64,000 bases of DNA, taken from the NCBI RefSeq assembly GCF_017676365.1, contig NZ_JADKMA010000013.1:1-64000 (forward strand). The letters run 5' to 3'. Within the stretch, counting starts at the first letter, position 1. Each line of letters begins with the position of its first letter. The translations under genes were made by a program, and so were the position numbers. Of this stretch, positions 10,013-30,626 are shown in pieces. A model generated the notes under the pieces. That model was not told where the DNA came from. It was given only the letters and a program-made list of their open reading frames with translations, and did no database searches. Source of the stretch: Streptomyces oryzae (lineage in GTDB: Bacteria; Actinomycetota; Actinomycetes; Streptomycetales; Streptomycetaceae).

Positions 10013-10055
10013 CGGGGCGGACGCGACCCGGCCGGGTCCGGCCATTCCCTTGTTG

Positions 10056-10069
10056 TGAAACACGTTCTA
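10056..10069. promoter_or_regulatory. KstR-like operator upstream of the acyl-CoA dehydrogenase
   Basis: TGAAACACGTTCTA fits the KstR motif TnnAACnnGTTnnA at every fixed position and lies 45 nt before the start codon. KstR is the TetR repressor of sterol catabolism in mycobacteria and rhodococci. No kstR gene is in this window. Confidence 0.6.
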
Positions 10070-10114: not shown

Positions 10115-11305
10115 GTGTACCTCGAATACACCGCCGAACAGCAGGAGCTGCGCACGGAGTTGCGGGAGTACTTCGCCCGGCTCGTACCCGAGGACGCGCG
10201 CACCGGGTACGCCGAACCCGCGGCGCAGAAGCGGTTCTACCGCGAGACCATAAGGCAACTCGGCCGGGACGGATGGCTCGGTGTGGGATGGCCGCGCGAG
10301 TACGGCGGGCGCGGGATGAGCGCCGTCGAGCAGTTCATCTTCTTCGACGAGGCCGCGCAGGCGGGCGTGCCGCTGCCGCTGATGGCACTGAACACCGTCG
10401 GGCCCACCCTCATGCGCTTCGGGACGGCGGAGCAGAAGGAGTACTTCCTGCCCCGCATCCTCTCCGGCGAACTGGACTTCGCCATCGGCTACAGCGAGCC
10501 GGACGCGGGCACCGATCTGGCCTCCCTCGCCACCCGCGCCGTCCGCGAGGGAGACACCGAGACCGGCCACTACACCGTCAACGGGCAGAAGATCTGGACC
10601 ACCAACGGGGACACCGCCGACTGGGTCTGGCTCGCGGTGCGCACCGACCCGGACGCCAAGCCGCACAAGGGCATCACGCTGCTGCTCGTACCGACCAGCG
10701 ACCCCGGCTACTCGTGCACCCTCATCACCACCCTCGCCTCCCACGACACCACGGCCGGCTACTACGAGAACGTGCGCGTGCCCGCGACCCGCAGGGTCGG
10801 TGCGGAGAACGACGGCTGGCGGCTGATCACCACGCAGCTCAACCACGAACGGGTCACGCTCGCCGCGCACGGCACGATGGCCATCCGCGCCCTGGAGGAC
10901 ACCAGGAAATGGGCGCGGCAGACCAAGCTGTCCGACGGGCGGCGCGTCATCGACCTGGACTGGGTCCGCACCCGGCTGGCCCGCGCGTACGCCAGGCTGG
11001 ACGCCATGAAGCTGCTCAACTGGCAGATGGTCGACGCCCTCGACAAGGGCACGCTGACCCCGCACGACGCCTCCGCGGTCAAGGTCTACGGCAGCGAGGC
11101 ACGCCGCGACGCCTTCGCCTGGCTGATGGAGGTGGTCGGCGCCGCCGGCCCGCTCAAGGAGGGTTCGGCGGGCGCGGTGCTGAGCGGCGAGCTGGAGCGC
11201 GGTTACCGCAGCGCCGTCATCTTCACCTTCGGCGGCGGCAACAACGAGATCCAGCGCGAGATCATCTCCTGGCTCGGCCTGGGCATGCCGCGCGTACGGC
11301 GCTAG
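10115..11305 (+). CDS. Acyl-CoA dehydrogenase
   Basis: A 396-residue FAD-dependent acyl-CoA dehydrogenase. The N-terminal helical domain, the FAD-binding central motif IGYSEPDAGTDLASL and NGQKIWTT, and the C-terminal FGGGNNEIQREIISWLGLGMP are all present at full length. GTG start behind GGAGG. It catalyses alpha,beta-desaturation of an acyl-CoA. The C-terminal signature resembles FadE proteins used for sterol side chains and branched substrates. A KstR-like operator just upstream suggests co-regulation with the fadD19/echA19 cluster 11 kb away. Confidence 0.93.
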   Translation: MYLEYTAEQQELRTELREYFARLVPEDARTGYAEPAAQKRFYRETIRQLGRDGWLGVGWPREYGGRGMSAVEQFIFFDEAAQAGVPLPLMALNTVGPTLMRFGTAEQKEYFLPRILSGELDFAIGYSEPDAGTDLASLATRAVREGDTETGHYTVNGQKIWTTNGDTADWVWLAVRTDPDAKPHKGITLLLVPTSDPGYSCTLITTLASHDTTAGYYENVRVPATRRVGAENDGWRLITTQLNHERVTLAAHGTMAIRALEDTRKWARQTKLSDGRRVIDLDWVRTRLARAYARLDAMKLLNWQMVDALDKGTLTPHDASAVKVYGSEARRDAFAWLMEVVGAAGPLKEGSAGAVLSGELERGYRSAVIFTFGGGNNEIQREIISWLGLGMPRVRR

Positions 11306-16234: not shown

Positions 16235-17341
16235 ATGCAGACGGAGCTGAGCAGACAGCTGGGAGCAGAGCACGCCATCTTCGGCTTCACGCCCTTCCCC
16301 GCCGTCGCCGCGGCGCTCACCCGCGCGGGCGGCTTCGGGGTGCTCGGCGCCGTGCGCTACGGCGCCGCCGACGACCTCAAACGCGACCTCGACTGGCTGG
16401 AGGCGCACACCGACGGACTGCCGTACGGCCTCGATGTGGTGATGCCCGCGAAGAAGGTCGAGGGGGTCACCGAGGACGAGATCGAAGCGATGATCCCCGA
16501 GGAGCACCGGCAGTACGTGCGCGACATCCTCGCCGAGTACGACGTACCCCAGCTCCCGGAGGGCGAGCGGAGCGGCTGGCGGATCACCGGCTGGATGGAG
16601 AGCGTGGCCCGCAGCCAGCTGGATGTGGCCTTCGACTATCCCGTCAAACTCCTCGCCAACGCCCTGGGTTCGCCGCCGCCCGATGTGGTCGAACGCGCCC
16701 ACCAGCAGGGCATCCCGGTGGCAGCGCTCGCCGGGAGCCCCCGGCACGCGCGGCGGCACAAGGAGGCGGGCATCGACATCGTGGTGGCCCAGGGGTACGA
16801 GGCCGGCGGTCACACCGGGGAGATCGCCTCCATGGTGCTCACGCCCGAGGTGGTGCGCGCCGTAGACCCGCTGCCCGTGCTGTGCGCGGGCGGTATCGGC
16901 AGCGGCGAACAGCTCGCTGCCGCCCTGGCGTTGGGCGCGCAGGGTGCCTGGCTCGGCTCGGTGTGGCTGACCACGACCGAGGCCGACCTCGGCTCCCGCG
17001 CGCTGACCCGCAAACTGCTGGCGGCCGGGCCCGGCGACACGGTCCGCTCGCGCGCCCTCACCGGAAAGCCCGCGCGGCTGCTGCGTACCGCCTGGACGGA
17101 CGCCTGGGAGGCGGGGGAGGGGCGGCCCGGCACCCTGCCGATGCCGTTGCAGGGGCTGCTGGTGGCGGAGGCCAACTCGCGGATCCAGCGGCACGAGGTG
17201 GAGCCGCTGCTGGGCACTCCCGTGGGGCAGATCGTCGGCTCCATGACCAGCGAACGGTCCGTGCAGGCTGTCGTCGACGACCTCACCCGCGGCTTCGACC
17301 GCGCCCTCGCCCGCCTCAACGCGATCGCGGAACGTAGCTGA
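16235..17341 (+). CDS. Nitronate monooxygenase family protein
   Basis: A 368-residue FMN-dependent TIM-barrel enzyme of the 2-nitropropane dioxygenase/nitronate monooxygenase family. Diagnostic stretches are the flavin-site EAGGHTG, the phosphate-binding VLCAGGIGSG and ALGAQGAWLGSVWLTT. Members oxidise nitronates, but many are catabolic flavoenzymes of unknown substrate. It is followed 102 nt later by an acyl-CoA synthetase gene and preceded by a palindrome shared with the fadD19/echA19 promoter, so a role in acyl or sterol-type catabolism is plausible. Confidence 0.9.
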   Translation: MQTELSRQLGAEHAIFGFTPFPAVAAALTRAGGFGVLGAVRYGAADDLKRDLDWLEAHTDGLPYGLDVVMPAKKVEGVTEDEIEAMIPEEHRQYVRDILAEYDVPQLPEGERSGWRITGWMESVARSQLDVAFDYPVKLLANALGSPPPDVVERAHQQGIPVAALAGSPRHARRHKEAGIDIVVAQGYEAGGHTGEIASMVLTPEVVRAVDPLPVLCAGGIGSGEQLAAALALGAQGAWLGSVWLTTTEADLGSRALTRKLLAAGPGDTVRSRALTGKPARLLRTAWTDAWEAGEGRPGTLPMPLQGLLVAEANSRIQRHEVEPLLGTPVGQIVGSMTSERSVQAVVDDLTRGFDRALARLNAIAERS

Positions 17342-21374: not shown

Positions 21375-23024
21375 TCACCCCGCCCTCTCGGCCAAGGTCC
21401 GGCGGGCCCAGCGGTAGTCGGCCTTGCCGCTGGGCGACCGCTGGATGTGCTCCGTCAGTACGACGGTGCGCGGCACCTTGTACCCCGCGAGCCGGGTGCG
21501 GGCGTGGTCCCGCACCCCCTCGGCGGTCAACGGCGGTGCCCCGTGGCGCGGTTGGACGACGGCAGCGACGCGGTGGCCCCACTTCTCGTCGGGGACGCCC
21601 GCGACGAGCGCGTCGTAGATGTCGGGGTGGGACTTGAGGGCTTCCTCGACCTCTTCAGGAAAGACCTTCTCGCCACCGGTGTTGATGCACTGCGAGCCCC
21701 GGCCCAGCACGGTGACGACGCCCTCCGCGTCCACGGTGGCCATGTCGCCGAGCAGCACCCAGCGGGCGCCGTCGGCCTCGAAGAACGTCTCGGCGCTCTT
21801 GGCCGGGTCGTTGTAGTAGCCGAGGGGTACGTGCCCGCGCAGCGCCAGGCGGCCGACCTCGCCGGGCGGCACCGGCCGGTGGGTGGCCGGATCGACCACG
21901 GCCGTACCGTCGTTGACGGTGATCCGGAAGCCCTTCGCCGGTCCTGAGTCGGCCGTCGCCGTGCCGTTGAACCCGGACTCCGAGGAGCCGAAGTTGTTGA
22001 TGAGCGTGGCGTGCGGCACCAGTCCGGCGAACTGCTCCCGCACCGTCTCGGAGAGGACAGCGCCCGAGCTGGAGACCGCGAGCAGCGACGAGCAGTCGGT
22101 GCCGCGCAGCGGACCGGCGAGCGCGTCCACCAGCGGGCGCAGCATCGCGTCGCCCACCAGCGAGACCGCTGTGACCTTCTCGTGTTCGATGGTGCGCAGC
22201 ACCTCCTCGGGCACGAACTTGCGGTGCAGCACCACCTTCTGGCCGTAGTTGAACCCGATGAAGAGGGTCAGCGTCGAGGTGCCGTGCATCAGCGGGGGAG
22301 TGGGGAAGAACACCAGCCCCGCACCGCCGGCCGCGACGCGCTCGGCCAGCTCCTCGGGCCGGGCGACGGGCTCACCGGTGGGAGCGCCGCCGCCGAGCCC
22401 GGAGAAGAACAGGTCCTCGGACCGCCACATCACTCCTTTGGGCATTCCGGTGGTGCCGCCGGTGTAGATCAGGAACAGATCGTCGGGCGAGCGCGGGCCG
22501 AAGTCGCGGTCCGACGGCTGGGCCGCCTCCGCCTCGGCGAACTCGGCGACGCCGACGGGGGCCACGGTGAGCGCGATGTCCGGCCCGTACTGCCTCTCCC
22601 GCGGCCGGCCGCCCACCCGCACGAGGTGGCGCAGCTTCGGGGCGAGCGGCGCCGCGGCAGCCACCCGCGCCGTGAACTCGCCGTCGAAGACGAGCGCGGT
22701 CAGATCGGCGTCCCGGTACAGATGGACCAGCTCGTCCGCCACATAGCGGTAGTTGACGTTCACGGGGACGGCACGGATCTTCAGGCAGGCGAGCAGGGCC
22801 TGTACGTACTCGACGCCGTTGTACAGATGCAGTCCGACATGGTCGCCCGGGCCGACGCCGGCGTAGGTGAGGTGGTGCGCGAAGCGGTTGGCCGCGCGGT
22901 CCAGCTCGGCGTAGGTCAGCCTGCGTTCGGCGCCGGTACCGGGGTGGTCCAGATGGACCAGTGCTTCGCGGTCAGGGACGGTGTCGACGATCGACTCGAA
23001 CAGATCGGCAAGGTTGTACTCCAC
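21375..23024 (-). CDS. fadD19: FadD19-like sterol/acyl-CoA synthetase
   Basis: A 549-residue ANL ligase whose sequence follows mycobacterial FadD19 closely: the N-terminal YNLADLFESIVD, YTGGTTGMPKGVMWR, PPLMHG, LGRGSQCINTGGEKV and the end KRSP-like RSPSGKADYRWA. FadD19 activates C26 sterol side-chain acids and is needed for C24-branched sterols in mycobacteria and rhodococci. The GTG start (23024) is chosen because GGAGGAG lies just before it; an ATG five codons upstream overlaps that site. It is divergent from echA19 across a gap carrying two palindromic operators. The function comes from family resemblance plus gene order. Confidence 0.88.
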   Translation of the reverse strand: MEYNLADLFESIVDTVPDREALVHLDHPGTGAERRLTYAELDRAANRFAHHLTYAGVGPGDHVGLHLYNGVEYVQALLACLKIRAVPVNVNYRYVADELVHLYRDADLTALVFDGEFTARVAAAAPLAPKLRHLVRVGGRPRERQYGPDIALTVAPVGVAEFAEAEAAQPSDRDFGPRSPDDLFLIYTGGTTGMPKGVMWRSEDLFFSGLGGGAPTGEPVARPEELAERVAAGGAGLVFFPTPPLMHGTSTLTLFIGFNYGQKVVLHRKFVPEEVLRTIEHEKVTAVSLVGDAMLRPLVDALAGPLRGTDCSSLLAVSSSGAVLSETVREQFAGLVPHATLINNFGSSESGFNGTATADSGPAKGFRITVNDGTAVVDPATHRPVPPGEVGRLALRGHVPLGYYNDPAKSAETFFEADGARWVLLGDMATVDAEGVVTVLGRGSQCINTGGEKVFPEEVEEALKSHPDIYDALVAGVPDEKWGHRVAAVVQPRHGAPPLTAEGVRDHARTRLAGYKVPRTVVLTEHIQRSPSGKADYRWARRTLAERAG

Positions 23025-23050
23025 GGCGCGCTCCTCCATACCCGGCCCGG

Positions 23051-23170
23051 CGTGCTCGTTCGTGTACGTGCTCGTCCGCGTGCGCCCCCGTGGCTGTCGC
23101 GATGCGCCCCCGTGCGTGCCCCGCCCCCGTGCGTATCCCGCACTCGCGCGTCCCCCGCCCGTGCGTGCCC
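23051..23170. repeat. Degenerate GTGCG/CCCCCGTGCGT repeats
   Basis: The fadD19-proximal part of the 308-bp divergent gap is built from imperfect repeats of GCCCCCGTGCGT and CGTGCTCGT. It is non-coding and lies in the fadD19 leader or promoter. Its origin is probably replication slippage. Confidence 0.6.
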
Positions 23171-23241
23171 AGCAGCGGTGTCGTCCGGCGTCATCAGAGC
23201 ACCGGCGCGCGAAGACGGGAAGGGCTTCCGCACCAGAAATA

Positions 23242-23254
23242 TGACGCTGCGTCA
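23242..23254. promoter_or_regulatory. Perfect palindrome TGACGC-T-GCGTCA in the fadD19/echA19 gap
   Basis: A 6-1-6 perfect inverted repeat followed by GAAA. The same sequence with one change occurs at 16177-16189 before the nitronate monooxygenase. It is a likely operator for a TetR-type regulator not encoded here. Confidence 0.65.
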
Positions 23255-23283
23255 GAAACCTCTTGAACTCCGCGCGGCATTAC

Positions 23284-23297
23284 TGCAACCTGTTCCA
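23284..23297. promoter_or_regulatory. KstR-like operator in the fadD19/echA19 gap
   Basis: TGCAACCTGTTCCA matches TnnAACnnGTTnnA at every fixed position. It lies 35 nt before echA19 and 30 nt from the TGACGC palindrome. It is the second full match in the window, and both precede beta-oxidation genes. Confidence 0.65.
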
Positions 23298-23332
23298 GGT
23301 CCTGAGGCGGCCCGCAGACGGGAGGATCCGCG

Positions 23333-24133
23333 ATGGGCGGCACCGAACATCTGACCGTGGAGCGCGTGGGTGCCACCCTCGTGCTCACCCTGAACCGTCC
23401 CGAAGCCAGGAACGCCCTCTCGCTGCCGCTGCTCGTCGGCCTGTACGACGGCTGGCTGGCGGCCGACGCGGACGACGCGATCCGCTCCGTCGTCCTCACC
23501 GGCGCGGGCGGCACCTTCTGCGCCGGCATGGACCTGAAGTCCCTCGCCGGTGACGGCATGACCGGCGAGCACTACCGCGAGCGGCTGCGCGAGGACCCGG
23601 ACCTGCACTGGAAGGCGATGCTGCGGCACCATCGCCCGCGCAAGCCCGTCGTCGCGGCCGTCGAGGGCCACTGCGTGGCGGGCGGCACCGAGATGCTCCA
23701 GGGCACGGACATCCGCGTCGCAGGCCAGAGCGCCGTCTTCGGACTCTACGAAGTGCGCCGCGGACTGTTCCCCATCGGCGGCTCGACGGTACGGCTGCCG
23801 CGGCAGATCCCGCGTACGCACGCGCTGGAGATGCTGCTGACCGGGCGCCCGTACAGCGCCGAGGAGGCAGCACGCATCGGGCTGATCGGGCGCGTCGTAC
23901 CCGACGGCACGGCGCTGGAGGCGGCCCTGGAGATCGCGGAACGCGTCAACGCCTGCGGCCCGTTGGCGGTCGAGGCGGTGAAGGCTTCCGTCTACGAGAC
24001 GGCCGCCATGCCCGAACCTGACGCGCTGGCCGCGGAGTTGGAGCGCGGCTGGCCCGTCTTCGACACGGCGGACGCCAAGGAGGGCGCCCGTGCGTTCGCG
24101 GAGAAGCGAGAGCCCCGGTTCCGCCGCGCGTGA
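23333..24133 (+). CDS. echA19: Enoyl-CoA hydratase (EchA19-like)
   Basis: A 266-residue crotonase-fold hydratase. The oxyanion-hole strand is CAGMDLK; both catalytic glutamates expected of a hydratase are present, one in GHCVAGGTEM and one in LYEVRRG. The C-terminal EGARAFAEKREPRF is typical of EchA enzymes. It would hydrate an enoyl-CoA of a sterol side chain by analogy with EchA19. First gene of a four-gene operon (echA19, DUF35, thiolase, thiolase) with stop/start overlaps. ATG start just after GAGGATCCGCG. Confidence 0.92.
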   Translation: MGGTEHLTVERVGATLVLTLNRPEARNALSLPLLVGLYDGWLAADADDAIRSVVLTGAGGTFCAGMDLKSLAGDGMTGEHYRERLREDPDLHWKAMLRHHRPRKPVVAAVEGHCVAGGTEMLQGTDIRVAGQSAVFGLYEVRRGLFPIGGSTVRLPRQIPRTHALEMLLTGRPYSAEEAARIGLIGRVVPDGTALEAALEIAERVNACGPLAVEAVKASVYETAAMPEPDALAAELERGWPVFDTADAKEGARAFAEKREPRFRRA

Positions 24134-24180
24134 GAACGCCCGCCCGTCGCCCCCTGCCAGAGACGGAGAGGTACCCACCC

Positions 24181-25146
24181 TTGAATGCGGCCCCGGCACA
24201 GAAAGTGCTCAGCGCACCCCTCGTCGTCGAGTTCCCCTTCACCCGCTCCCTCGGCCCTGTCCAGAGCGCCTTCCTCACCGGCCTGCGCGAACGCACGGTC
24301 CTCGGTGTCATGGCATCGGACGGCCGCGTCCTCGTACCGCCCACCGAGTACGACCCCGTCACCGCAGAGGAGATCCGCGACCTGGTGGAGGTGGGCAGCA
24401 CCGGCACCGTCACCACCTGGTCGTGGAACGCCGCCCCGCGCAGAGGGCAGCCGCTGCGGCGCCCCTTCGCCTGGGTGCTGGTCCGCCTCGACGGCGCCGA
24501 CACCGCCCTGCTGCACGCGCTGGACGCGCCGGAGGGGCCCGCATCGGTCCGCACTGGCATGCGCGTGGGCATCCGCTGGTCCGAGCAGCGCAGCGGCGCC
24601 ATCACGGACATCGCCTGCTTCGAGCCCGTCGGCACCAGCGCACCCACCCACCGCGCCGAGCCGCACACCGGCGCGTTCGCCGACCCGGTCACCGGCATCG
24701 TCGCCGAGGCCCGCCTCGACTACACCTACACGCCGGGGCGCGCCCAGACCCGCTACCTCGACGCGCTGGCCGGCCATCGCACGCTCGGCGAGCGCTGTCC
24801 GCGCTGCCGCAAGGTGTACGTCCCGCCCCGCGGCGCCTGCCCCACCTGCGGAGTGCCGACCGGCGAGCAGGTCGAGGTCGGCCCGCGCGGGACGGTCACC
24901 ACGTTCTGCGTCGTCAACATCAAGGCCAAAGGGCTCGACATCGAGGTGCCGTACGTCTACGCGCACATCGCCCTCGACGGCGCCGGGCTCGCACTGCACG
25001 GACGTATCGCCGGCATCCCCTACGACCAGGTGCGTATGGGCCTGCGCGTCGAGCCCGTCTGGACCGAGGGCGGACGCCATCCGGACCACTACCGGCCAAC
25101 CGGCGAGCCCGACGCCGACTACGAGACGTACAAGGAGCTGCTGTGA
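24181..25146 (+). CDS. DUF35 OB-fold protein (two-domain)
   Basis: About 321 residues with two DUF35/OB-fold halves joined by a rubredoxin-like zinc ribbon (C206, C209, C220, C223 in CPRC..CPTC). DUF35 proteins are obligate partners of thiolase-like retro-aldolases and acyl-CoA ligases in sterol degradation, where they deliver CoA-thioesters (the ChsH2-Ltp2 example). It sits directly before two thiolase genes, matching mycobacterial Rv3521. I chose a TTG start with GGAGAGG 10 nt upstream; a GTG at 24130 overlapping the echA19 stop (GTGA) would add 17 residues but lacks a ribosome site. Confidence 0.85.
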   Translation: MNAAPAQKVLSAPLVVEFPFTRSLGPVQSAFLTGLRERTVLGVMASDGRVLVPPTEYDPVTAEEIRDLVEVGSTGTVTTWSWNAAPRRGQPLRRPFAWVLVRLDGADTALLHALDAPEGPASVRTGMRVGIRWSEQRSGAITDIACFEPVGTSAPTHRAEPHTGAFADPVTGIVAEARLDYTYTPGRAQTRYLDALAGHRTLGERCPRCRKVYVPPRGACPTCGVPTGEQVEVGPRGTVTTFCVVNIKAKGLDIEVPYVYAHIALDGAGLALHGRIAGIPYDQVRMGLRVEPVWTEGGRHPDHYRPTGEPDADYETYKELL

Positions 25147-26285
25147 CGAGCCGAGCGGGGCACAGCCGGGCGGGGTACCGCGAGGAGGGCCGCAGAGACG
25201 TCGCCGTGGTGGCCTTCGCGCAGACGGCGCACGTACGCGCGGCCGACAGCCTCTCCGAGGTCGAGATGCTGCTGCCGGTGCTGCGCGAAGTCCTCGACGG
25301 AACGGGGCTGTCGGCGGGGGAGATCGACTTCACCTGCTCCGGCTCCTGCGACTATCTGGCCGGCCGACCGTTCTCCTTCACCATGGCGCTGGACGGAGTG
25401 GGTGCCTGGCCGCCGATCTCCGAGTCGCATGTGGAGATGGACGGTGCCTGGGCGCTCTACGAGGCATGGGTCAAGATCCTCACCGGCGAGGCCGAGACCG
25501 CGCTCGTCTACTCCTACGGCAAGTCCTCAGCGGGCGATCTGCCCGAGGTCCTCACCCGGCAGCTCGACCCGTACTACGTCGCGCCGCTGTGGCCCGACTC
25601 CCCCTCGCTGGCCGCACTTCAGGCCCGCGCCCTGATCGACGCGGGCGAGACCGACGAACGGGAGCTGGCCGGGATCGCGGCGCGCAGCAGGAACGCCGCA
25701 CAGGACAACCCGTATGCACAACTGGCCGGCTCGCCCGCCGCCGGCACCCTGCTGGAGGACGACTATCTCGCGCAGCCCCTGCGGCTGCACGACGTTCCGC
25801 CCGTCACCGACGGCGCCGCCGCCGTGCTGCTCGCCGCGGGGGACACAGCTCGTCGGCTGAGCCGGCGCCCCGCGTGGATCAGCGGCATGGACCACCGGAT
25901 CGACCCGCATGGCCTGGGCGTACGCGACCTCACCGACTCGCCCTCCACCCGGCTGGCCGCCGAACGTGCCGGACTGTTCGCTCCGGGGGCACCACCACCG
26001 GACGTCGCCGAACTGCACGCCCCGTTCACCTCCCAGGAAGTCGTCCTGCGCAAGGCCCTGCGGCTCGGCGAGGACACCGTCGTCAACCCCTCGGGCGGCC
26101 CACTGGCGGCCAACCCCGTCATGGCGGCCGGGCTCATCCGGATCGGCGAAGCAGCAGCGCGCGTCTCCCGCGGCGAGGCCCGCCGCGCGGTCGCGCACGC
26201 CACCTCGGGGCCATGCCTCCAGCAGAACCTCGTCGCGGTCCTGGAGGCGGACGGTGGCGAAGACGAAGGAGGAGGGCAGGCATGA
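25143..26285 (+). CDS. Thiolase-like protein (Ltp4-like)
   Basis: About 380 residues, thiolase superfamily, lipid-transfer-protein branch. Visible are the FAQTAHVR start strand, the segment FTCSGSCDYLAGRP where the nucleophile region would be, GAAAVLLA and the C-terminal NPSGGPLAANPVMAAG with a His in AHATSGPCLQQNLV. The usual thiolase nucleophile motif is poorly conserved, as in retro-aldolase members. GTG start overlaps the DUF35 stop by 4 nt and has AAGGAG 5 nt upstream, so the pair is translationally coupled. Position between DUF35 and the Ltp3-like gene fits Ltp4 of mycobacteria. Confidence 0.85.
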   Translation: MTSRAGHSRAGYREEGRRDVAVVAFAQTAHVRAADSLSEVEMLLPVLREVLDGTGLSAGEIDFTCSGSCDYLAGRPFSFTMALDGVGAWPPISESHVEMDGAWALYEAWVKILTGEAETALVYSYGKSSAGDLPEVLTRQLDPYYVAPLWPDSPSLAALQARALIDAGETDERELAGIAARSRNAAQDNPYAQLAGSPAAGTLLEDDYLAQPLRLHDVPPVTDGAAAVLLAAGDTARRLSRRPAWISGMDHRIDPHGLGVRDLTDSPSTRLAAERAGLFAPGAPPPDVAELHAPFTSQEVVLRKALRLGEDTVVNPSGGPLAANPVMAAGLIRIGEAAARVSRGEARRAVAHATSGPCLQQNLVAVLEADGGEDEGGGQA

Positions 26286-27451
26286 GCGGCAAAGAGCCCG
26301 TCGGCGTCATCGGAATCGGTCAGACCAAGCACGTCTCGGCACGCCGCGACGTCTCCTTGGCGGGCCTGGTAAGGGAAGCGGCGCTGCGGGCGCTGGAGGA
26401 CGCCGAGTTGGGCTGGGCCGACATCGACGCCGTAGTGATCGGGAAAGCCCCCGACTTCTTCGAGGGCGTCATGATGCCCGAGCTCTATCTGGCCGACGCG
26501 CTCGGCGCGGCAGGCAAGCCCATGCTGCGGGTGCACACCGCCGGGTCCGTCGGCGGCAGTACCGCGCTGGTCGCCGCCAATCTGGTCGCGGCCCGTGTGC
26601 ACCGCACCGTGCTGACCCTCGCGTTCGAGAAGCAGTCCGAGTCCAACGCGATGTGGGGGCTGTCGCTGCCCGTACCGTTCCAGCAGCCGCTGCTGGCGGG
26701 CGCAGGCGGATTTTTCGCGCCGTACGTCCGCGCCTACCTGCACCGCACCTCGGCTCCCGGCCACATCGGCGCACTCGTCGCCTACAAGGACCGCCGCAAC
26801 GCCCTGAAGAACCCGTACGCGCACCTCCACGAGGAGGACATCACCCTGGAGAAGGTCCGCTCCTCGCCGATGCTGTGGGACCCCATCCGCTACTCGGAGA
26901 CCTGCCCCTCCTCCGACGGGGCGTGCGCCATGGTGCTGACCGACCGCGCGGGGGCGGCGCGCGCCCCGCGGCCGCCCGCCTGGGTGCACGGCGGAGCCAT
27001 GCGCAGCGAACCCACCCTCTTCGCCGGCAAGGACGCCGTCTCACCGCGCGCGGGCAGCGACTGCGCCGCCGACGTCTACCGCCAGGCGGGCATCACGGAG
27101 CCGCGCCGGGAGATCGACGCCGTGGAGATGTATGTGCCCTTCTCCTGGTACGAGCCGATGTGGCTGGAGAACCTCGGCTTCGCCAAGGAGGGCGAGGGCT
27201 GGAAGATGACCGAGTCCGGCGCGACCGAGCTCGACGGCGATCTGCCCGTCAACCCTTCCGGCGGCGTACTGTCCACCAACCCCATCGGGGCCTCCGGCAT
27301 GATCCGCTTCGCCGAGGCAGCGCTCCAAGTGCGGGGTGCGGCAGGCGCACACCAGGTGCCGGGGGCGCGCAGAGCGCTCGGGCACGCCTACGGGGGCGGC
27401 TCGCAGTTCTTCGCGATGTGGCTGGTCGCCGCCGAGCCGCCCGTCTCCTAG
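26282..27451 (+). CDS. ltp3: Thiolase-like protein (Ltp3-like)
   Basis: A 389-residue protein of the SCP2/LTP thiolase branch, strikingly like mycobacterial Ltp3. It has GIGQTKHVSARRDVS, GKAPDFFEGVMMPEL, HTAGSVGGSTALVAA, EKQSESNAMWGLS, ETCPSSDGACAMV and the C-terminal NPSGGVLSTNPIGASG and GHAYGGGSQFF. Ltp3 and Ltp4 are required for C24-branched sterol side-chain removal, probably as a DUF35-dependent aldolase. ATG start overlaps the previous stop by 4 nt. Last gene of the echA19 operon. Confidence 0.9.
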   Translation: MSGKEPVGVIGIGQTKHVSARRDVSLAGLVREAALRALEDAELGWADIDAVVIGKAPDFFEGVMMPELYLADALGAAGKPMLRVHTAGSVGGSTALVAANLVAARVHRTVLTLAFEKQSESNAMWGLSLPVPFQQPLLAGAGGFFAPYVRAYLHRTSAPGHIGALVAYKDRRNALKNPYAHLHEEDITLEKVRSSPMLWDPIRYSETCPSSDGACAMVLTDRAGAARAPRPPAWVHGGAMRSEPTLFAGKDAVSPRAGSDCAADVYRQAGITEPRREIDAVEMYVPFSWYEPMWLENLGFAKEGEGWKMTESGATELDGDLPVNPSGGVLSTNPIGASGMIRFAEAALQVRGAAGAHQVPGARRALGHAYGGGSQFFAMWLVAAEPPVS

Positions 27452-30128: not shown

Positions 30129-30626
30129 ATGTCGTTCCTCCGCCGCCGCAGCGCCGCCGTGCCCGCAGGCCCGGACTTCGATGTCCTGGCCATGGACCCG
30201 TCCGACTGGCCGGGGAATCTCGGCGCCGGGCTGCTGCCCGCGCCGGACGGGAGCTGCCAGGGCGTCTTCCTGCGCTATGACCTGTTCGGCGGACGCGGCC
30301 CCGCGATGATCATCGGCAATCTCCCGGAGGGCTCCCCGGCGCGGGAGGTCGCCGAGGGAGAGGTGCCGTTCGAGGTGGCACAGCTGCTCTCCGCGCTGGA
30401 GAACGACGAGCACGTCGAGGTCGTCGGCACCGAGGACGACCCGGTGATGCACGAGGACAACCTGCTGATCGTGCGCCGTATCAAGCTGTCCGAAGACCGG
30501 ATCTCCTGCGTCCAGTTCGACCGCAGCGACGGTGTGCTGGTCACCATCGCGAGCTGGGACCGGCCCATCACCAACGACCTGTACGCGCTCCTCAAGCCGC
30601 TGCCGGCCGAGATGTTCCAGCAGTGA
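30129..30626 (+). CDS. Conserved hypothetical protein
   Basis: A 165-residue soluble alpha/beta protein beginning MSFLRRRS. It is acidic overall with a central segment LENDEHVEVVGTEDDPVMHEDNLLIVRR. I do not recognise the fold or a catalytic motif. It is a single gene ended by a strong bidirectional terminator. Confidence 0.8.
   Translation: MSFLRRRSAAVPAGPDFDVLAMDPSDWPGNLGAGLLPAPDGSCQGVFLRYDLFGGRGPAMIIGNLPEGSPAREVAEGEVPFEVAQLLSALENDEHVEVVGTEDDPVMHEDNLLIVRRIKLSEDRISCVQFDRSDGVLVTIASWDRPITNDLYALLKPLPAEMFQQ

What the first reader, a model, noticed from the sequence alone, without database searches (positions are those of the whole stretch)
21375..27451. Sterol side-chain module fadD19 | echA19-DUF35-ltp4-ltp3 in a Streptomyces-like genome
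Gene content, divergent orientation and overlap pattern match mycobacterial Rv3515c, Rv3516 and Rv3521-Rv3523. FadD19, Ltp3 and Ltp4 act on C24-branched sterol side chains. Here the set is compact, without the P450 and intervening genes, suggesting a reduced pathway for phytosterol-like side chains or for another branched acid.
Basis: partly seen in the sequence, partly recalled or inferred. Interest (0 to 1): 0.65.

Follow-up and report, generated by a model that had tools for sequence, protein, structure and literature searches.

The report
Streptomyces sterol side-chain gene module
These five genes are the Streptomyces version of a known gene set for removing branched plant-sterol side chains, and they seem to belong to a scattered, conserved sterol pathway that has its beginning and its end but lacks the known ring-opening steps in the middle.

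Summary
fadD19 | echA19-DUF35-ltp4-ltp3 lies at 21375-27451; all five are mutual best hits of a mycobacterium-like set (44-65% identity). It is the normal Streptomyces form: same order in 19 of 19 other module-bearing congeners taken and 75 of 80 named loci. The published KstR operator TnnAACnnGTTnnA occurs exactly twice in 64 kb (0.03 expected), before echA19 and before a fadE26-like gene.

'Reduced pathway' needs correcting. cyp125-fadA5, chsH2-chsH1-ltp2 and C/D-ring (HIP) genes lie elsewhere in the genome. At the thresholds used, Ltp4, FadA5 and Ltp2 are in the same 20 of 31 congeners and none of the other 11; IpdA too, but for one 31% match. Missing is A/B-ring opening: the own genome has no KshA, HsaC or MlaD/Mce match, no KstD at 1e-40 and no HsaD above cut-off. 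Strong KshA and HsaC occur in 1 of the 20.

So the genus keeps both ends of sterol catabolism without the known middle. How the gap is bridged, if at all, is open.

The parts
21375..23039 (-). FadD19-type acyl-CoA synthetase (554 aa), predicted to activate the C26 sterol acid
   Evidence: NF005863/PRK07798 713.7 bits vs cut-off 543; mutual best hit of G193 FadD19, 44% over 556 aa
23284..23297 (.). KstR-operator-like palindrome TGCAACCTGTTCCA in the fadD19|echA19 divergent promoter
   Evidence: One of only two exact matches to TnnAACnnGTTnnA in 64 kb, 0.03 expected. Core AACnnGTT in 20 of 20 Streptomyces intergenic stretches, full consensus in 9 of 20; core in 71 of 75 named ones
23333..24133 (+). 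EchA19-type enoyl-CoA hydratase (266 aa)
   Evidence: NF005864 406.4 vs 316; EchA19 equivalog NF051848 370.3, below its cut-off of 400; mutual best hit 53%
24130..25146 (+). Double OB-fold DUF35 protein (338 aa) with zinc ribbon, predicted scaffold for Ltp3/Ltp4
   Evidence: PF01796 two stretches and PF12172; best PDB match ChsH2(DUF35) 6ok1_B, 3.4e-8; mutual best hit 45%
25143..26285 (+). Ltp4-type thiolase-fold protein, predicted aldol lyase subunit (380 aa; the start is uncertain, relatives begin about 17 residues later)
   Evidence: NF005924 560.6 vs 419; mutual best hit 56%; HAPF at the Ltp2 YDHF position; alignment of starts
26282..27451 (+). Ltp3-type thiolase-fold protein, predicted aldol lyase subunit (389 aa)
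   Evidence: NF006180 701.9 vs 514; mutual best hit 65%; YVPF keeps the Tyr of the Ltp2 YDHF motif
10056..10069 (.). Second KstR-operator-like palindrome TGAAACACGTTCTA, before the fadE26-like gene
   Evidence: Exact match to TnnAACnnGTTnnA; the G193 fadE26 region carries TGTAACACGTTCTA (L226:4172)
10115..11305 (+). FadE26-like acyl-CoA dehydrogenase (396 aa); start uncertain, the longest open frame begins at 10055, which would take in the operator site
   Evidence: Mutual best hit of G193 FadE26, 51-52% over 395 aa, FadE29 next at 49%; acyl-CoA dehydrogenase domains. Not a fixed neighbour: a close relative lies near the module in only 1 of 80 named stretches (L175) and in none of 19 others
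16235..17341 (+). NMO-family flavoprotein, 54% identical to the gene directly after fadD19 in G193; possible but unproven pathway member
   Evidence: Mutual best hit 54% over 377 aa, distinct from IpdC; a relative of 40% or more in 10 held Streptomyces loci, but in none of the 19 stretches

Best explanation
This is a KstR-type module of Streptomyces for removing the C24 branch of plant and fungal sterol side chains. It is one of several unlinked loci of a conserved sterol gene set.

Inferred action: the CYP125-like P450 encoded elsewhere oxidises C26 to the acid. FadD19 makes the CoA thioester. A FadE26-type dehydrogenase introduces the double bond. EchA19 or a partner hydrates it. Ltp3 and Ltp4, held by the double-OB DUF35 protein, cleave the C24 branch by a retro-aldol reaction. 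FadA5, ChsH2-ChsH1 and Ltp2, encoded elsewhere, complete removal to a 17-ketosteroid.

Module-bearing members of the genus also keep the C/D-ring (HIP) genes. Apart from 1 of 20 genomes they lack strong KshA and HsaC, steps between the two ends, so most strains should stop at AD or ADD from sterols, use HIP made by others, or use an unknown link.

Shown: gene content, gene order, co-occurrence, operator-like sites. Inferred: reactions, regulation by a KstR protein, stopping point.
For: Mutual best hits for 5 of 5 genes among held stretches and family models for 4 of 5. Same module in 19 of 19 other module-bearing genus members and 75 of 80 named loci. KstR consensus exactly twice in the window, both before pathway genes, 0.03 expected. 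Site with 10 or more of 12 palindrome bases at the fadA5|cyp125 promoter in 20 of 20 loci. Published KstR motifs lie at Rv3515c/Rv3516, Rv3503c/Rv3504 and Rv3545c/Rv3546 in M. tuberculosis (PMC1995591 passages). Own genome encodes FadA5 over the 'steroid 3-ketoacyl-CoA thiolase' cut-off (691.8 vs 515), a P450 closest to steroid C26-monooxygenase/CYP125 structures (2e-148), an Ltp2-type protein (652.5 vs 469) and FadD3 (775.4 vs 657). In 31 genus members, at the thresholds used: Ltp4 20, FadA5 the same 20, IpdA at 56-63% the same 20 (one of the other 11 has a 31% match), Ltp2 the same 20. KstD at 54-57% in 11 of 20 and 0 of 11, within a few kb of the module in G125 and G270. S. peucetius CYP125A13 hydroxylates cholesterol at C27 (PMC9728343 abstract and passages).
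Against: EchA19 misses its equivalog cut-off, and FadD19 identity is only 44%. M. smegmatis echA19 is dispensable on both sterols tested (PMC6273163 abstract), so the hydratase step is uncertain. At 10 or more of 12 palindrome bases only 6 of 20 fadD19|echA19 promoters score, and only 9 of 20 match the full published consensus. No KstR protein of 40% or more was seen in the held loci; none was searched genome-wide. The best FadE27 relative held is 31%. No MlaD/Mce transporter. The igr and FadD3 loci show no KstR box above chance. Family f16 has Ltp4 relatives in 14 genomes without strong KshA and with FadA5 in only 3, so an Ltp4 alone does not prove sterol use. Co-occurrence was not corrected for phylogeny. 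No growth or metabolite data for this strain.
Confidence: 0.75

Rival explanations
1. A plainer account of the gap (compatible with the module being for sterols): a full 9,10-seco pathway was ancestral and its A/B-ring block was lost, leaving side-chain and HIP modules that now act separately (side-chain carbon from sterols, HIP from other microbes). No unknown enzyme is needed.
For: G125 carries KshB, KshA, HsaF, HsaG and HsaE within about 4 kb of the HIP gene EchA20, with HsaC and HsaD 2-3 kb beyond the end of that stretch; no other held Streptomyces locus has them at 40% or more. Transient release of steroid intermediates and possible cross-feeding are described for bile-acid degraders (PMC8399759 passages). 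A streptomycete growing on HIP accumulated MOODA (Hashimoto and Hayakawa 1977, as cited in PMC5380842).
Against: Both ends are kept together in 20 of 20 and missing together in 11 of 11, which suggests one continuous function rather than two independent ones; with an uncorrected phylogeny this is weak. G125 could also have gained the block.
Confidence: 0.5
2. The set acts on a non-sterol branched isoprenoid or terpenoid acid and only resembles the sterol module.
For: FadD19 identity of 44%, EchA19 below its equivalog cut-off, no Mce uptake domain and no KshA in the genome, and Ltp4 relatives in family f16 mostly without FadA5 or strong KshA.
Against: Steroid-type partners: FadA5 over its steroid cut-off, CYP125-like P450, KstD over the 3-oxosteroid dehydrogenase cut-off in G016 (901.5 vs 788), KstD within the same stretch as the module in 5 of 80 named loci, and KstR-type sites.
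Confidence: 0.12
3. The A/B-ring genes are present but missed, because this draft genome has 404 contigs or the orthologs are very divergent.
For: The own HIP cluster is split between contigs C8 and C389; C8 begins in EchA20, on the side where G125 has its A/B block.
Against: Seven module-bearing congeners listed with 1-3 contigs (G016, G050, G096, G152, G161, G238, G278) also lack a KshA match in the 240-bit range of true KshA; G016 has a 93-bit relative. The same model finds strong KshA in 26 of 26 f4 and 9 of 9 f22 module-bearing genomes, and the HsaC query finds 48% or more in all five KshA-bearing controls given, one of which is its own source.
Confidence: 0.08

Closest known systems
Mycobacterial/rhodococcal fadD19-echA19 ... 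Rv3521-ltp4-ltp3 set for C24-branched sterol side chains
   Same: Same five families, same divergent order, operator-like site in the same promoter (published motif)
   Different: Compact, no P450 or intervening genes; DUF35 zinc-ribbon cysteines kept here but lost in G193; no KshA or MlaD/Mce in the own genome; cyp125 on another contig
KstR regulon (TnnAACnnGTTnnA)
   Same: Consensus at the fadD19|echA19 and fadE26-like promoters of the window; palindrome at fadA5|cyp125 elsewhere
   Different: Scattered over the chromosome; no KstR gene seen in held loci; igr-like operon without a box
9,10-seco cholesterol pathway of actinobacteria
   Same: Side-chain genes and a HIP/KstR2 cluster with the same gene content
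   Different: Strong KshA and HsaC missing in 19 of 20 module-bearing congeners; KstD missing in 9 of 20; no MlaD/Mce and no HsaD above cut-off in the own genome (not tested in the others)
Ltp2-ChsH2(DUF35) steroid aldolase (6ok1) and the Sal-Shy(DUF35) aldolase (probably 9myr; that assignment is inferred from chain names)
   Same: Thiolase-fold subunit paired with DUF35; Ltp3 keeps the catalytic Tyr position (mechanism from PMC12329534 passages)
   Different: Ltp3 has YVPF and Ltp4 HAPF instead of YDHF; two different thiolase-fold proteins and a double-OB DUF35 protein. Ltp4 did not list 6ok1 or 9myr at 0.001

Membership tests
FadD19/EchA19/DUF35/Ltp4/Ltp3 C24-branched sterol side-chain module | All five families present in the conserved divergent order | tested here: met
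FadD19/EchA19/DUF35/Ltp4/Ltp3 C24-branched sterol side-chain module | EchA19 equivalog model cut-off (not itself a defining feature of the set; echA19 is dispensable in M. smegmatis) | tested here: not met
   NF051848 370.3 bits vs 400; the broader equivalog NF005864 is met, 406.4 vs 316
FadD19/EchA19/DUF35/Ltp4/Ltp3 C24-branched sterol side-chain module | Required for sitosterol/campesterol side-chain removal | not testable with these tools
   Needs deletion and metabolite analysis
FadD19/EchA19/DUF35/Ltp4/Ltp3 C24-branched sterol side-chain module | Other side-chain genes (cyp125, fadA5, chsH, ltp2) in the same genome | tested here: met
   C183, C262
KstR regulon | TnnAACnnGTTnnA at the promoter | tested here: met
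   2 exact sites in 64 kb, both before pathway genes, 0.03 expected; full consensus in 9 of 20 orthologous promoters, core in 20 of 20
KstR regulon | KstR repressor gene in the genome | tested here: inconclusive
   No hit of 40% or more in held Streptomyces loci; whole genome not searched
9,10-seco sterol degradation pathway | KshA, HsaC, HsaD, KstD | tested here: not met
   Own genome: KshA 0 at 0.001, HsaC none at 1e-10, HsaD best 63.9 bits vs 400, KstD none at 1e-40. HsaA and HsaB not searched genome-wide
9,10-seco sterol degradation pathway | Mce4 uptake system | tested here: not met
   MlaD/Mce domain PF02470: 0 matches in the own genome; the model rings in 4 of 14 control genomes
KstR2/HIP (C/D-ring) pathway | IpdA, IpdB, IpdC, EchA20, FadA6, FadE32, FadE33, FadD3, KstR2 | tested here: met
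   All mutual best hits of the reference within the stretches held; FadD3 equivalog 775.4 vs 657

The most novel reading that the evidence does not exclude
Module-bearing Streptomyces, and a second family (f15, where 8 of 12 module-bearing genomes lack a KshA match), carry a continuous sterol pathway whose A/B rings are opened by enzymes unrelated to KshAB/HsaABCD, delivering HIP to the standard C/D-ring enzymes. A possible locus to look in is the conserved FadD3 | Ltp2b-DUF35-ECH region (all 20 module-bearing Streptomyces). Its Ltp2b also occurs in the three KshA-less f15 genomes tested and in none of the five KshA-bearing controls outside the genus, but G125 has both KshA and Ltp2b, and the region may equally serve HIP side-chain oxidation.
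Probability: 0.2. Interest if true: 0.85.

Novelty: new variant of a known kind. Interest (0 to 1): 0.6.

Why it matters
A published survey counted 55 of 57 Streptomyces genomes as lacking a steroid pathway (PMC4810484 passages); its key-enzyme phylogeny used KshA, HsaA, HsaC and HsaD. Here 20 of 31 sampled congeners keep tested markers of both ends of that pathway, with operator-like sites, and 19 of these 20 lack strong KshA and HsaC. If this holds in metabolism, a major soil genus would strip sterol side chains to androstane steroids without destroying the rings (the outcome that industrial mycobacterial strains are engineered for), or it hides an unknown ring-opening route. Both are testable with sitosterol and HIP feeding of laboratory strains.

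Tried and rejected
Rejected: 'a reduced, isolated module'. The rest of the side-chain set is on other contigs. Rejected: 'a recent acquisition peculiar to this strain'. The same order occurs in 19 of 19 congeners taken, with a conserved orphan gene beside it in 18 of 19 and amidase and APH-type genes in 12 of 19 each, within 20 kb stretches.

Considered and not supported: the C366 Ltp2-like region as a certain alternative ring-opening route. Its ligase passes the FadD3 (HIP-CoA ligase) equivalog, so ordinary HIP side-chain oxidation is at least as likely. An HsaB-like reductase in C366 (47%) appears in only two held Streptomyces loci at 40% or more. A TetR gene in C366 was tested as KstR and is not (36.6% over 41 aa).

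Led nowhere: KstR boxes at the igr and FadD3 loci (0 and 2 hits, 3.5 and 2.5 in shuffles). KstR2-like sites at the FadD3 locus exceed shuffles (17 vs 4) but are mostly one conserved site away from gene starts, so I do not count them. HsaD, IpdE2 and KshA family searches of the own genome found only relatives below cut-off or nothing. HsaA was tested only in held loci (0 at 40% or more).

'Streptomyces' for the own genus rests and on G230 sharing its contig length (306956) with the S. piniterrae record L147. 'Mycobacterium-like' for G193 and the names KstR, KstR2, HsaA-G, KshA/B, FadE26-34, FadA6, FadD17, Ipd, EchA20, ChsH and Hsd4B on its genes rest on my recall of the published gene order; homologs of FadA5, FadD3, EchA19 and KstD were supported by NCBIfam, ChsH2 by Pfam and KshA by PF19298. 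The KstR2 motif and the canonical thiolase Cys position are recalled. Mutual best hits were computed only among stretches held. The 20/11 split was not corrected for phylogeny. Co-occurrence thresholds differ by query (E 1e-60, 1e-140, 1e-10, 1e-60 for Ltp4, FadA5, IpdA, Ltp2).
Full report
WHAT IS THERE. The window carries fadD19 (21375-23039, -) divergent from echA19-DUF35-ltp4-ltp3 (23333-27451, +), the last four overlapping by 4 bases each with the starts as called. NCBIfam places four of five in the expected families above cut-off; the hydratase passes PRK07799 but not the EchA19 equivalog, and the DUF35 protein has no NCBIfam match. The DUF35 protein has two OB_ChsH2_C stretches and a zinc ribbon. 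Of the 80 nearest named loci, 76 carry a Streptomyces title, and the window is contig C44 of a 7.7 Mb draft in 404 contigs.

HOW ORDINARY IT IS. Among 296 genomes of the class, 82 have an Ltp4 over cut-off, including 20 of 31 of the own genus. In the 19 other module-bearing congeners the five genes stand in the same order with 71-92% identity; on the ltp3 side a 165-aa orphan protein recurs in 18, an amidase in 12 and an APH-type gene in 12 of the 19 (20 kb stretches). Of 80 named loci, 75 show the full order; five are partial. So the compact form is the normal Streptomyces form.

ORTHOLOGY. All five proteins are mutual best hits (44, 53, 45, 56, 65%), judged among stretches held, not whole genomes. 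The order in G193 is the same but with a P450 and other genes between. Two more window genes match that region: a fadE26-like dehydrogenase at 10115-11305 (51-52%; FadE29 close behind at 49%) and an NMO-family gene at 16235-17341 (54%) whose relative directly follows fadD19 in G193. Neither is a fixed neighbour: a close fadE26-like relative lies near the module in 1 of 80 named stretches and neither gene is in the other 19.

REGULATION. The published KstR motif is TnnAACnnGTTnnA, found in M. tuberculosis at Rv3515c/Rv3516, Rv3503c/Rv3504 and Rv3545c/Rv3546 among others (PMC1995591, passages). It occurs exactly twice in the 64 kb against 0.03 expected, and none of 100 shuffles had two. One site (23284-23297) ends 35 bases before echA19; the other (10056-10069) ends 45 bases before the likely fadE26-like start. 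With up to three mismatches to the full palindrome there are 12 sites (2.5 expected), 8 of them away from pathway genes, so only the strict motif is telling. The core AACnnGTT is in the fadD19|echA19 gap of 20 of 20 Streptomyces, but the full consensus in 9 of 20, and 10 or more of 12 palindrome bases in 6 of 20. At fadA5|cyp125 a site with at least 10 of 12 bases is in 20 of 20 loci (26 hits in 386 kb in all, 3 in shuffles). A KstR2-like site (motif recalled) is at the HIP locus in 18 of 21 stretches (21 hits, 1.5 in shuffles). The igr-like and FadD3 loci show no KstR box above chance.

THE REST OF THE PATHWAY. Elsewhere in the own genome: C183 encodes FadA5, over the 'steroid 3-ketoacyl-CoA thiolase' cut-off (691.8 vs 515), divergent from a P450 closest to steroid C26-monooxygenase/CYP125 structures (2e-148). 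C262 encodes ChsH2 (36%), ChsH1 (48%, by tblastn; my gene caller merged the two) and Ltp2 (65%). C8 and C389 encode EchA20, IpdA, IpdB, IpdC, FadA6, FadE32, FadE33 and KstR2. C366 encodes FadD3 (775.4 vs 657), a FadE30-like dehydrogenase (49%; three other Streptomyces have one of 64-68%) and a second Ltp2-like protein (46%).

CO-OCCURRENCE. In the 31 genus members, at the thresholds used, Ltp4 and FadA5 are in the same 20, IpdA at 56-63% in the same 20 (G178, without the module, has a 31% match), and Ltp2 in the same 20, two copies each (65-68% and 45-47%). The loci are unlinked (for example G050: 8.93, 6.69, 7.09 and 4.95 Mb on C1). In the 20 kb stretches taken, IpdA and IpdB are called in 20 of 20 genomes, KstR2, IpdC and EchA20 in 19, FadA6 in 18, FadE32 in 16 and FadE33 in 14, some ends being cut off; ChsH-type genes and Ltp2 in 20 of 20. 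I did not correct for phylogeny; a few losses could give this pattern. Across families, 26 of 26 (f4), 9 of 9 (f22) and 1 of 1 (f30) module-bearing genomes also have strong KshA and FadA5. In f15, FadA5 is in 12 of 12 but strong KshA in 4 of 12. In f16, Ltp4 is in 14, FadA5 in 3 and strong KshA in 0. f16 therefore does not follow the sterol pattern and may use its Ltp4 relatives otherwise.

THE GAP. Own genome: KshA 0, HsaC none at 1e-10, HsaD best 63.9 bits against a cut-off of 400, KstD none at 1e-40, MlaD/Mce 0. Of the 20 module-bearing congeners, strong KshA and an HsaC of 48% or more are in one, G125. Others have weaker relatives: G016 a 93-bit KshA-family match and a 42% HsaC match, G050, G086, G204 and G278 HsaC matches of 29-36%. 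The HsaC query finds 48% or more in all five KshA-bearing controls and nothing in three KshA-less f15 genomes. KstD (54-57%) is in 11 of 20 and 0 of 11; the G016 copy passes the 3-oxosteroid 1-dehydrogenase equivalog. It lies a few kb from the module in G125 and G270 and within the stretch in 5 of 80 named loci. In G125, KshB, KshA, HsaF, HsaG and HsaE lie within about 4 kb of EchA20, with HsaC and HsaD 2-3 kb beyond the end of that stretch; no other held Streptomyces locus has them at 40% or more. In the own genome that side of EchA20 is a contig end. Mce and HsaD were tested genome-wide only in the own genome.

MECHANISM. Ltp2 uses the Tyr of a YDHF motif as base and a second Tyr as acid; CtSal uses YDCY (PMC12329534, passages). 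At that position Ltp3 has YVPF and Ltp4 HAPF (YAPF in G193). By inspection neither keeps a Cys at the usual thiolase nucleophile position (recalled). This fits retro-aldol rather than thiolytic chemistry, but which subunit is catalytic is unknown. The Streptomyces DUF35 protein keeps the CxxC...CxxC ribbon that G193 has lost. FadD19 is needed for sitosterol but not cholesterol in M. smegmatis, and echA19 for neither (PMC6273163, abstract). Ltp3-Ltp4 as C24-branch aldol lyase is from a review (PMC6678751, passages); the primary paper on ltp3/ltp4 was seen only as a reference title.

LITERATURE. Among the titles and abstract beginnings listed by searches (several lists capped) I saw no paper describing this combination in Streptomyces. 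I read passages or abstracts, not whole papers, and most subscription journals are not held. PMC4810484 passages: 55 of 57 Streptomyces genomes lacked a steroid pathway. PMC5380842 passages: a streptomycete grown on HIP accumulated MOODA, reported in 1977. PMC9728343 abstract and passages: S. peucetius CYP125A13 hydroxylates cholesterol at C27.

VERDICT. The module is a regular member of a known kind. The interesting part is the context: both ends of sterol catabolism conserved together without the known A/B-ring steps. Loss of an A/B block with retained side-chain use and HIP scavenging is the plainer account; an unknown ring-opening route is possible but has no direct evidence.

Noticed in passing
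window 30129-30626 (+): 165-aa protein without a Pfam match that is 86-92% identical over nearly its full length near the module in 18 of 19 other Streptomyces stretches: a highly conserved orphan.
   Followed up: no
L272 and L232 (unnamed congener G125): The one sampled Streptomyces with KshB, KshA, HsaF, HsaG and HsaE near the HIP cluster, and HsaC, HsaD and an HsaB-like gene close by: a natural comparison for the gap in the others.
   Followed up: partly
L304-L322, own L009/L010 (contig C366): Conserved FadD3 | Ltp2-like-DUF35-ECH region, with F420H2-dependent quinone reductase, amidohydrolase, acyl-CoA dehydrogenase and luciferase-like monooxygenase genes in 16, 15, 12 and 10 of 21 stretches (domains from one representative each).
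   Followed up: partly
window 24130-25146 vs L083:10586-11617: Zinc-ribbon cysteines of the DUF35 protein are intact in the five Streptomyces sequences aligned but lost in the mycobacterium-like ortholog.
   Followed up: no
family f16 genomes: 14 genomes have an Ltp4-family protein over cut-off but no strong KshA and mostly no FadA5, so these Ltp4 relatives may have another role.
   Followed up: no
L208: A record titled Microtetraspora glauca NRRL B-3735 ranks among Streptomyces loci with Ltp4 at 74% identity; possibly a misnamed Streptomyces.
   Followed up: no
own contig C366 (L010:2797-4014): FMO-like flavin monooxygenase near DUF35 and thiolase genes; its family is not among those shared by 8 or more of the 21 stretches compared.
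   Followed up: no
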